From NCBI RefSeq assembly GCF_008014695.1, contig NZ_VOXE01000002.1, forward strand, positions 62,001 through 126,000: 64,000 bases of DNA, read 5' to 3'. Shown piece by piece: positions 40,459-42,968 of this stretch. The number at the start of each line of letters is the position of its first letter. Within the stretch, counting starts at the first letter, position 1. The stretch is from Chryseobacterium sp. Its GTDB lineage: Bacteria > Bacteroidota > Bacteroidia > Flavobacteriales > Weeksellaceae. A program made the position numbers and the translations under genes. Below the pieces are notes generated by a model, which ran no database searches, was not told where the DNA came from, and saw only the letters and a program-made list of their open reading frames with translations.

Positions 40459-40785
40459 ATGAAAGAACAGAAACTCCTTATTTCCGCACCGCTGCTCTAT
40501 GGAATTGCGCTTCTCGGAGCCGTATTTACCATCATTACCGTAACACTGGATGCCGCGGTGCTGGGATTGAATATCCCGGCAAACTTCTTCCTTTTTGTAG
40601 GGTCATTCTGCACCCTTATGGCGATCCTTGTGTCCGCCGCCGATGTTTTCCGCAATCAGGTGAAGAACAGAGCCCTTTGGCTCGTGACTTTCGTCATCTT
40701 TGGCGGAATCGGAGTCCTGTACTATCTCTATAACCGGAAAAGGTTTCTTGCTAAAAGCAACATTAATTTAAATCATTTGCCATGA
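40459..40785 (+). CDS. Small membrane protein of unknown function (first of a pair)
   Basis: 108 residues. Hydrophobic segments lie at about 8-30, 38-62 and 71-92. The last segment LWLVTFVIFGGIGVLYYLYNRK, with flanking basic residues, resembles the C-terminal half of the PLDc_N-like small membrane module. No signal for a known family is strong enough for a name. Its stop overlaps the start of the next gene (ATGA), so they are coupled. Confidence 0.65.
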   Translation: MKEQKLLISAPLLYGIALLGAVFTIITVTLDAAVLGLNIPANFFLFVGSFCTLMAILVSAADVFRNQVKNRALWLVTFVIFGGIGVLYYLYNRKRFLAKSNINLNHLP

Positions 40786-41087
40786 ATGTTTCTCCAATGT
40801 TGATCGACCGCCGCACTTTACTGGGGCTGGCTTTTCTAAGTCTTGCCATTATACTTATTGGTGCCCTACTGAAGATTACCCATTTCAGCATAGGACCCAT
40901 TACCGGCAACTATCTGTTGGCCGTTGGTCTTGTTCCCGGATTTTTTGTCTGGGCACTGGTCATTTATGATATTCTGAAACATTCCTTCCGGAATTCTTTA
41001 CTTTGGCTCATTGGCATAATCTTCTTCGGGAATCTAGGATGCATTGTCTATCTTCTCCAGCGCGATGAACTGGTGACGCGGCGTTAA
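40782..41087 (+). CDS. Small membrane protein of unknown function (second of a pair)
   Basis: 101 residues with three hydrophobic segments (about 12-33, 45-65 and 73-92). The C-terminal pattern NSLLWLIGIIFFGNLGCIVYLLQRDE parallels the upstream gene (NRALWLVTFVIFGGIGVLYYLYNRKR), so the two look like diverged paralogues. The arrangement is a translationally coupled two-gene unit. Function unknown; a PLDc_N-like membrane module is the nearest pattern I can see. Confidence 0.65.
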   Translation: MNVSPMLIDRRTLLGLAFLSLAIILIGALLKITHFSIGPITGNYLLAVGLVPGFFVWALVIYDILKHSFRNSLLWLIGIIFFGNLGCIVYLLQRDELVTRR

Positions 41088-41215
41088 ACCCTCATTTTCT
41101 TCAGATATTCCGCGAGATGAGAACCTTTTTTCCTTAATTTTTTAAGGAGGGATGAAGCGATTTTTTTGGATAATTTATGCCGGCTGCGCACCCTGTATTC
41201 ATGCGGCCTACAAAA

Positions 41216-41313
41216 GACCCGTATCTTTTACACAAAAGATGCGGGTCTTTTCACAAAAAGATACGGGTCATTTATCCAAACGATGCGGGTCATTTGTGTA
41301 AACGATGCGGGTC
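41216..41313. repeat. 22-bp periodic array, five units (first one inverted)
   Basis: The 10-bp core GATRCGGGTC occurs at 41238, 41260, 41282 and 41304, exactly 22 bp apart. One further unit, 22 bp before the first, is GACCCGTATC at 41216, the exact reverse complement of GATACGGGTC. Units are flanked by A-rich runs before (AAAA or AAAC) and T-rich runs after (TTTT or ATTT), so each unit is an imperfect 18-bp palindrome. The 12-bp gaps vary in sequence. Confidence 0.9.
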
Positions 41314-41543
41314 ATTTTTACACCCCTCTGCTAAGCACTTGCAACACTTCAGCATCAGCCCTGAAAAACTGTCTTTCGAAAGGGTTTCAGCGCTTCAATG
41401 TTGTGAAAATTGATTGCATTGGTTCTTACGCTTATGCTATTTATTTTCCGCATTTTTCTCCCTCTTTTTTTCTTCATGATCGTGTGTGTGCGGGCAATTG
41501 CAAAGTCAGCCCCTGAAGTTTATGGATATTATTTTCAAAACCT

Positions 41544-41551
41544 TACTTTTG
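41544..41551 (+). promoter_or_regulatory. -7 box of rlmD
   Basis: TACTTTTG matches TAnnTTTG and ends 4 bp before the rlmD ATG. Confidence 0.5.
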
Positions 41552-41555
41552 CACC

Positions 41556-42968
41556 ATGGCAAAACACAAAAAGAAAAATCTTGTTCTTGAGAATATCAAA
41601 CTCACCTCTGCCGGTTCCAAAGGCGTAGCAGTAGGCCGGACCGAAGAAGGCAAGACCGTGCTGGTCTCCGGAGCAGTTCCGGGAGATACCGTGAATGTGC
41701 GGGTGAAAAAAGCAAAATCGAATTACTTTGAAGGCGAAGCAATTGATATTATCGTGCGTTCGCCTTACCGTGTGGAGCCAAAATGCATCCATTTCGGCGT
41801 ATGCGGCGGCTGCAAATGGCAGAACCTGTCTTATGAAAAGCAGCTCGACATCAAGCAGGATGAGGTGTACAACCATATTAAAAGAATCGGCGGTTTCGAG
41901 GATTTTGAAACCATGCCCATCATTGGCAGCGAAGAGCAGTATTTCTACCGCAACAAAATGGAGTTCTCTTTTTCCAACTCGCGCTGGCTCACGCATTATG
42001 AGATCAGTTCCGAAGAGAATTTCGGCAACCGAGATGCCCTCGGTTTCCATATCCCGGGCCAGTGGAGCAAGATCCTGGACCTGAAGGAATGCTGGCTTCA
42101 GGAAGATCCTTCGAACGCCATAAGACTTGCGGTGAAGAACTACGCTGTACAGAACGGACTGGAGTTTTTTGATGTAAAGAATCAGCAGGGTTTCCTCAGG
42201 ACGCTTATGCTTCGCCAGACTTCGAAAGGGGAATGGATGGTACTCTTCCAGCTCTTCCGCGAAGAGAAAGAGAACCGCGAGCAGCTTTTTGAATATCTGC
42301 TGAAGGAATTTCCTCAGATCAAGACCTTAGTGTATACCATCAATGCCAAACAGAATGACTCGATTTATGACCAGGATATAGAGACGTATTTCGGAGACGG
42401 CTATCTGATGGAAGAAATGGACGGCCTGTTTTTCAAAATAGGACCCAAATCATTTTTCCAGACCAATTACCGGCAGGCATTGCAGCTCTACCGCAAAACA
42501 TTGGAATTTGCAGATCTGCAGGGACACGAGGTGGTATATGATTTATACACCGGCACGGGAACCATCGCCCAGTATGTTGCACGGAATGCGAAACAGGTGA
42601 TCGGTATTGAGTCGGTTCAGGAAGCCATCAACGCAGCGAAAGAGCATGCTGAAATCAACGGTCTCGACAACTGTACGTTTTACTGCGGCGACATGAAGGA
42701 CATCTTCAACGATGGTTTTCTCGCCAGTCACCCGAAAGCGGATGTTCTGATTACCGATCCGCCAAGAGACGGCATGCACCAGAAGGTGGTAGAGCAGATC
42801 CTGAAACTGGCGCCGGAGAAGATTGTTTACGTAAGCTGCAACTCGGCTACACAGGCCAGGGATATCGCTTTGATGAAAGATGCCTACCGCCTTGTGAAGA
42901 TCCTGCCGGTGGATATGTTCCCGCAGACGCATCATGTAGAGAATATTGCCCTGCTTGTTAAAATATAA
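41556..42968 (+). CDS. rlmD: 23S rRNA (uracil(1939)-C(5))-methyltransferase RlmD
   Basis: A 470-residue RumA/TrmA-type methyltransferase. An N-terminal TRAM domain (about 10-65) comes first. The [4Fe-4S] ligands are Cys77, 83, 86 and 179 (CIHFGVCGGC and ECWLQ). The SAM-binding region is YDLYTGTGTIAQYVARNA, then DPPRDGMH. The catalytic Cys428 lies in YVSCNSAT. It makes m5U in large-subunit rRNA. The exact target position cannot be told from sequence and could be another uridine. It is followed by DUF6452 and DUF6048 genes. Confidence 0.92.
   Translation: MAKHKKKNLVLENIKLTSAGSKGVAVGRTEEGKTVLVSGAVPGDTVNVRVKKAKSNYFEGEAIDIIVRSPYRVEPKCIHFGVCGGCKWQNLSYEKQLDIKQDEVYNHIKRIGGFEDFETMPIIGSEEQYFYRNKMEFSFSNSRWLTHYEISSEENFGNRDALGFHIPGQWSKILDLKECWLQEDPSNAIRLAVKNYAVQNGLEFFDVKNQQGFLRTLMLRQTSKGEWMVLFQLFREEKENREQLFEYLLKEFPQIKTLVYTINAKQNDSIYDQDIETYFGDGYLMEEMDGLFFKIGPKSFFQTNYRQALQLYRKTLEFADLQGHEVVYDLYTGTGTIAQYVARNAKQVIGIESVQEAINAAKEHAEINGLDNCTFYCGDMKDIFNDGFLASHPKADVLITDPPRDGMHQKVVEQILKLAPEKIVYVSCNSATQARDIALMKDAYRLVKILPVDMFPQTHHVENIALLVKI

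What the first reader, a model, noticed from the sequence alone, without database searches (positions are those of the whole stretch)
41216..41313. Five-unit 22-bp periodic array upstream of rlmD, first unit inverted
Seen: a 10-bp core GATRCGGGTC at 41238, 41260, 41282 and 41304 with exactly 22-bp spacing, preceded in the same register by its reverse complement at 41216. Each unit sits in A-rich/T-rich flanks, giving an imperfect 18-bp palindrome. Inference: 22 bp is about two helical turns, so identical protein contacts would lie on one face of the DNA. This fits an operator array or a nucleoid or partition-type binding site. It lies in a 468-bp gap with no gene. It does not look like CRISPR (gap 12 bp, core 10 bp) and is not coding, since 22 is not a multiple of 3.
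Basis: partly seen in the sequence, partly recalled or inferred. Interest (0 to 1): 0.6.

Follow-up and report, generated by a model that had tools for sequence, protein, structure and literature searches.

The report
Private DNA-site arrays of HU-HIG proteins
The five-unit repeat is one of many small 22-bp palindrome arrays scattered through Weeksellaceae genomes, whose sequence changes in step with a short N-terminal segment of a histone-like (HU-HIG) protein, so it is very probably that protein's private binding site, a pairing I found no description of.

Summary
It is not chance and not a one-off. Across Weeksellaceae, HU-HIG genes (PF18291) carry adjacent arrays with the same 22-bp architecture. 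Arrays with that genome's core are also dispersed in other intergenic gaps, enriched between convergent genes. Cores differ widely between species and paralogs. In one orthologous HU-HIG group the core covaries with residues about 6-25 of the protein and not with the rest. Residue 25 predicts palindrome position 4 (N to A 13/13; D or Q to T 7/7). Residue 14 separates AA/TT from other centres (22/22). The protein module and the core switch together on a tree of the rest of the gene. I conclude that arrays are specific binding sites of HU-HIG dimers, read by an N-terminal beta-hairpin that canonical HU/IHF lack. The window array is a dispersed array for this genome's first HU-HIG protein, not an rlmD operator. 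What binding achieves is unsettled: architectural or insulator role (favoured), selfish repeat, or terminator. Against: the sister genome's rlmD core matches no HU-HIG locus examined; the second own HU-HIG does not fit the simple code; no binding data.

The parts
41212..41229 (-). unit 1 (inverted), AAAAGACCCGTATCTTTT on + strand; AAAAGATACGGGTCTTTT on -
41234..41251 (+). unit 2, AAAAGATGCGGGTCTTTT; identical to the lone unit beside HU-HIG gene 1 elsewhere in the genome
41256..41273 (+). unit 3, AAAAGATACGGGTCATTT
41278..41295 (+). unit 4, AAACGATGCGGGTCATTT
41300..41317 (+). unit 5, AAACGATGCGGGTCATTT
41212..41317 (.). whole 22-bp-period palindrome array (5 units, 4-bp variable linkers)
41088..41555 (.). 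468-bp gap holding the array; tandem (+ +) context
40782..41087 (+). 101-aa small membrane protein gene left of the array (weak GldL_N / PLDc_N matches); context only
41556..42968 (+). rlmD (TIGR00479, 339 bits), right of the array; context only

Best explanation
The array is a cluster of sequence-specific binding sites for a dimer of the HU-HIG family (HU/IHF superfamily), here the product of the gene at G000:C2:241294-241668. Each 18-bp palindrome binds one dimer. The two-fold A/T arms are shared by most HU-HIG sites. The inner 10 bp are read by an N-terminal beta-hairpin (residues about 4-27) that canonical HU and IHF lack. The 22-bp step, about two helical turns, puts successive dimers on one face, favouring cooperative assembly. 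Each HU-HIG paralog keeps a private core, present beside its own gene and in dispersed intergenic arrays. When the hairpin changes, the arrays of that genome change in step. Shown: anatomy, linkage to HU-HIG genes, same core in trans in many cases, covariation with the N-terminus, residue-base pairing. Inferred: physical binding, cooperativity, and the role, most likely architectural or insulator-like (analogous to IHF on RIB elements) rather than promoter control of rlmD.
For: Of 24 loci of this HU-HIG orthologous group, 20 have a 22-bp palindromic array upstream, z 5 to 15 against dinucleotide shuffles. Among lags 15-35, almost only 22 appears in 8-kb loci, and at the HU-HIG gene. Most called HU-HIG paralogs in G083, G098, G107, G060, G159 and G147 have such an array just downstream or upstream with paralog-specific cores. 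Core distance correlates with residues 6-25 at r=0.71 (0/2000 permutations) against 0.36 for synonymous changes in the same codons, 0.24 for the 95 bp before the gene, and 0.00 for the 30 bp before the start; partial r for residues 9-25 stays 0.72-0.75. With the rest of the protein the partial r is 0.06. Residue 25 with position 4 (eta2 0.98) and residue 14 with position 9 (0.93) are the top two of 486 column-position pairs. On a tree of codons 31-122, residue 25 and position 4 both change 5 times and agree in 20/20; residue 14 and the centre both change 4 times and agree in 22/22; all 3+3 supported independent pairs go the same way. In trans: dispersed arrays, found mostly with a core-blind pattern, match their own genome's HU-HIG locus best of 29 loci in 18 of 30 cases. 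The same trpS/HAD gap carries CGTCCTTACG in K. chaponensis and CGTCCGTATG in K. pullorum, each equal to that genome's HU-locus core. Window array: best match G027 HU-HIG 1 array, second own HU-HIG 1 unit.
Against: No binding data. The own HU-HIG 1 locus has only one unit. The sister genome's rlmD array (CACTTCGGTG) matches no HU-HIG locus examined. HU-HIG 2 of this genome has nearly the same hairpin as its G147 ortholog (CGTCGARACG) yet its arrays are mainly AAGCAAGCTTGC; two of them interleave both cores. Seven of 30 dispersed arrays clearly mismatch the own-genome loci tested. Array and N-terminus are physically close, so co-recombination could contribute. The residue-base code holds in one orthologous group only. 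The structure model is weak (pLDDT 55).
Confidence: 0.77

Rival explanations
1. Selfish or mobile intergenic repeat (REPIN-like): arrays are copies of the HU-HIG-locus array that spread, with HU-HIG helping or only coating them; no benefit to the host.
For: Gene flanked by its repeats, with dispersed same-core copies; patchy HU-HIG number, up to about 25 per genome; rlmD array in only 2 of 30 Kaistella loci read; conserved flanking hairpin at both HU-locus and dispersed arrays in Epilithonimonas-type genomes; convergent-gap bias also fits harmless insertion.
Against: HU-HIG has no transposase domain; dispersed arrays in Kaistella and G147 show no obvious shared flanks; orthologous arrays stay at one place while their cores change with the HU locus.
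Confidence: 0.3
2. Bidirectional transcription terminators: the inverted first pair folds as an 18-bp stem with a 4-nt loop and an A/T-flanked end.
For: Perfect or near-perfect inverted pairs in the window, L133, L209; convergent bias.
Against: Many arrays consist of direct repeats that form no such stem (for example L183, L189 of G147); terminators need no 22-bp register and no core tied to HU-HIG residues; 4 of 9 dispersed G147 arrays lie between divergent genes.
Confidence: 0.08
3. Autoregulatory operator of HU-HIG, with dispersed arrays as a small regulon.
For: Adjacent array upstream of the gene in this orthologous group.
Against: In other subfamilies the array lies after the stop codon; dispersed arrays favour convergent gaps without promoters; in the window a conserved flavobacterial promoter-like sequence of rlmD abuts its start codon, over 200 bp from the array.
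Confidence: 0.12
4. Linkage artefact: array and 5' end of the gene are swapped together by recombination, so core and N-terminus correlate without binding.
For: The rest of the gene has a discordant tree, so recombination or fast module change occurs.
Against: DNA between array and start codon and synonymous sites correlate much less; dispersed arrays match in trans; C. echinoideorum HU-HIG L055 has no adjacent array, but that genome's dispersed arrays carry the core of its NPQQP class.
Confidence: 0.1

Closest known systems
HU-HIG family (PF18291), solved relative BVU_2165 (4fmr); Burroughs et al. 2017 HU/IHF survey (recalled, text not held)
   Same: The linked gene is a member by Pfam score; lineage-specific expansion in Bacteroidetes.
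   Different: As far as I know, no description of cognate DNA arrays, of sequence specificity or of a hairpin code; none found in the papers searched.
IHF-binding RIB/RIP and BIME repeats of enterobacteria (Boccard and Prentki 1993, cited in PMC3733652)
   Same: HU/IHF-family protein bound to palindromic repeats at 3' ends of transcription units.
   Different: There the repeat is REP-derived and IHF is a housekeeping factor; here each paralog has a private, fast-changing core at a fixed 22-bp step.
REP/REPIN with RAYT transposase (PMC3116915, PMC2817692)
   Same: Single gene beside its palindromes plus dispersed copies; gene-specific repeat sequence.
   Different: Gene is an HU-fold protein, not a Y1 transposase; tandem 22-bp arrays; tens, not hundreds, of copies.
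Iterons and parS/ParB-type centromere arrays
   Same: Phased protein sites near the binding protein's gene.
   Different: No Rep or ParA/ParB gene linked in the loci read; sites scattered over the chromosome.

Membership tests
HU-HIG (PF18291), for the linked protein | score over the curated cut-off of PF18291 | tested here: met
   88.8 and 116.6 bits against 26.2 for the two genes of this genome
HU-HIG (PF18291), for the linked protein | HU/IHF fold | tested here: inconclusive
   Residues 35-125 align to HU chains (E about 1e-3); Foldseek best 4fmr then HU/IHF but model pLDDT 55
CRISPR array | near-identical repeats with unique spacers of similar length, 20-50 bp each | tested here: not met
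   18-bp palindromes with 4-bp linkers
REP / REPIN | dispersed palindromes with a linked RAYT (Y1) transposase | tested here: inconclusive
   Dispersal and palindromes met; linked gene is HU-HIG, not a transposase; no genome search for Y1 transposases was made
Known structured RNA (Rfam 15) | match over a family's gathering score | tested here: not met
   none in 10 array loci, none over gathering in the window
IHF-RIB-like architectural site | direct binding and bending by the HU/IHF-family protein | not testable with these tools
   needs EMSA, footprint or ChIP-seq
IHF-RIB-like architectural site | location at 3' ends / outside promoters | tested here: met
   21 of 37 dispersed arrays in convergent gaps against 13 of 87 background gaps, Fisher p=5e-6 (two rows placed by eye); the window array itself is in a tandem gap
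Plasmid iteron / parS | linked rep or parAB gene | tested here: not met
   neighbours of window and dispersed arrays are varied chromosomal genes

The most novel reading that the evidence does not exclude
HU-HIG proteins form a new class of nucleoid protein with evolvable sequence specificity: a hypervariable N-terminal hairpin with a readable residue-to-base code, co-evolving with private 22-bp phased arrays scattered over the chromosome. They act as paralog-specific chromosome-organising or partition-like systems, from Weeksellaceae to Parabacteroides and Treponema.
Probability: 0.4. Interest if true: 0.9.

Novelty: new variant of a known kind. Interest (0 to 1): 0.78.

Why it matters
HU-fold proteins are textbook low-specificity DNA packers, and IHF reads sequence mostly indirectly. 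A branch in which short phased arrays and a hypervariable hairpin change together would be a new DNA-recognition mode. It would give the large unexplained HU-HIG expansions of Bacteroidetes a testable partner, with specific residue swaps predicted to change specificity. It would also explain a class of dispersed intergenic repeats found in many Weeksellaceae genomes.

Tried and rejected
Rfam scans found nothing relevant. A conserved 38-bp hairpin (CCCTTCTGCAAGTCC-GATGAACA-GGGCGTTTGCAGAGG) beside arrays is strong in Epilithonimonas-type loci. By eye I thought I saw it in the window flank; the score test did not support that, so it is not claimed for the window. I considered co-recombination of array and gene 5' end, and tested it with synonymous sites and intervening DNA. 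The sigma-70 promoter and terminator scan shows nothing at the array. A viral-contig search for relatives found none. Phage and plasmid searches gave only distant HU-HIG genes. The first mechanical context script mislocated two arrays (L197, L201); they were placed by eye. The literature library holds nothing found on HU-HIG arrays and not the 2017 HU-superfamily paper.

Full report
Observation. The real unit is an 18-bp imperfect palindrome with A/T arms, AAAMGATRCGGGTCWTTT, at 41212, 41234, 41256, 41278 and 41300, each followed by four variable bases. The first unit has the opposite polarity. Neighbouring units agree at 16-18 of 18 positions; 300 Markov resamples of the gap never exceeded 14. 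No other strong lag-22 place exists in the window. In the 2.77-Mb genome this core recurs only as one lone exact unit, AAAAGATGCGGGTCTTTT, at C2:241839, which lies upstream of a 126-aa gene.

The linked gene. That gene scores 88.8 bits against PF18291, HU-HIG (cut-off 26.2). A second HU-HIG gene lies at C1:692996. In the sister genome G027 (Kaistella sp. MAG), the same gap beside the orthologous HU-HIG gene holds a six-unit array, AAAAGTCCCGTATCGTTT + 4, at 22 bp. A scan of named genomes gave 25 loci, nearly all Chryseobacterium, Kaistella and Epilithonimonas. Of 24 loci of this group, 20 carry a palindromic array at exactly 22 bp upstream, z 5 to 15 against dinucleotide shuffles. A lag scan from 15 to 35 finds 22 almost exclusively, and at the HU-HIG gene. 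In other Weeksellaceae genera with up to about 25 HU-HIG genes, most called paralogs carry an array just after the stop codon, each type with its own core. Outside the family, Parabacteroides distasonis (22 bp, upstream of the HU gene preceding rpsL) and a Treponema plasmid (21 bp) also have one; nine further distant hits that I read do not.

Dispersed arrays. A core-blind pattern, AAAAN10TTTTN4AAAAN10TTTT, over 297 genomes shows strong excess over the reversed control in many (for example 24:0, 28:2, 26:2, 17:0). In those genomes arrays are scattered and share a genome-specific core. G147 has about ten places with CGTCGARACG, all in 22-bp register, one of them just after its HU-HIG gene. This genome's HU-HIG 2 core (AAGCAAGCTTGC) occurs at three places. 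Dispersed arrays sit in convergent gaps in 21 of 37 cases against 13 of 87 other gaps (p = 5e-6; two rows were placed by eye, and arrays of one genome are not independent).

Specificity. In the orthologous group (22 proteins with unit sets), core distance follows residues 6-25 (r 0.71) and not the rest of the protein (partial r 0.06), although residues 85-107 vary as much. Controls for linkage are weaker: synonymous changes in the same codons 0.36, the 95 bp before the gene 0.24, last 30 bp before the start 0.00. Among 486 column-position pairs, residue 25 with palindrome position 4 and residue 14 with position 9 rank first and second. N25 goes with A4 in 13 of 13, D25 or Q25 with T4 in 7 of 7; R25 (this genome and G027) is mixed. 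R14 goes with an AA/TT centre in 6 of 6, all others with another centre, mostly CG (16 of 16). The tree of codons 31-122 separates sequences that share hairpins. Trait and site change five and four times respectively and always together; only three supported independent pairs exist per trait, so each sign test alone cannot reach significance. A protein outside the set, G147 C13:200171 (D25), has T4 as predicted.

In trans. Of 30 dispersed arrays tested against 29 HU-HIG loci, the own-genome locus ranks first in 18 (nine of these are from G147). K. chaponensis and K. pullorum share an array in the same trpS/HAD gap; each copy has the core of its own genome's HU locus. C. echinoideorum's L055 protein lacks an adjacent array, and that genome's two dispersed arrays carry the core of its hairpin class. 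The clear mismatches are G071 L192/L193 (equal to the core of a paralog found in E. caeni and E. hungarica, perhaps relicts), G159 L199, G207 L138 and the G027 rlmD array, besides the two G288 arrays just named.

The window array. Its cores match the G027 HU-HIG 1 array best and the own HU-HIG 1 unit second. Of 30 Kaistella rlmD loci whose DNA I read, only this genome and G027 have an array there. G027's is at the same place with the same 22-bp step but the core ACACTTCGGTGA. So the position appears inherited and the core replaceable. Replacement is visible in this genome: the C3:566722 array alternates AAGCAAGCTTGC and CCTTTCGACG-type units in one register, and the HU-HIG 2 locus has one CGTCGAAAGG unit among AAGCAAGCTTGC units. 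The second core is that of the G147 ortholog. This is also a problem for a hairpin-only code, because the two orthologs have almost the same hairpin.

Mechanism. Inference: a dimer binds each palindrome, with A/T arms common to the family and the inner bases read by the N-terminal hairpin. The AlphaFold2 model has strands 4-10 and 21-27 around a loop, then the HU elements, but overall confidence is low; HU chains in the PDB align only from about residue 35 on. Two helical turns between sites place dimers on one face. Because the adjacent array is upstream in one subfamily and downstream in others, and dispersed arrays avoid promoter-bearing gaps, I favour an architectural or insulator-like role over promoter control. 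A selfish repeat is the main rival. The confidence of 0.77 is for HU-HIG binding sites; for the architectural role alone I would give about 0.4.

Novelty. HU-HIG is a named family and IHF-bound dispersed repeats are known, so I rate this a new variant of a known kind. I found no description of HU-HIG target arrays or of a residue-base code in the literature that could be searched, which omits most subscription papers.

Noticed in passing
L062, L063, L066-L068, L071, L074, L192-L196, L198, L199, L202-L204: A conserved imperfect hairpin, CCCTTCTGCAAGTCC-GATGAACA-GGGCGTTTGCAGAGG, lies beside arrays at HU-HIG loci and at dispersed sites in Epilithonimonas-type genomes; no Rfam match. Function unknown.
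   Followed up: partly
L223 1107-1215 (G027) against window 40782-41087: In G027 the small membrane-protein gene left of the array is truncated after about 23 codons and runs straight into the array's flank, as if a deletion ended at the array.
   Followed up: no
L201 4022-4129 (G000:C3:566722-566829) and L046 1384-1490: Arrays mixing two cores in one 22-bp register, apparently caught during unit-by-unit replacement.
   Followed up: partly
L312 992-1079 (Parabacteroides distasonis) and L317 872-955 (Treponema saccharophilum plasmid): Similar palindrome arrays (22 and 21 bp) upstream of HU-family genes outside Weeksellaceae.
   Followed up: partly
L048 from about 2000 (G008): A CRISPR-like array with a repeat of about 47 nt (GTTGTTCCTCGTCACGAAGATAATGAAATTTGAAAGCAATTCACAAC) close to a decayed HU-HIG copy.
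   Followed up: no
L043, L047, L049, L048 (G008, G017): Several near-identical HU-HIG genes per genome with shared flanks and CACCGCGGTG arrays, suggesting duplication of gene plus array as one unit.
   Followed up: no
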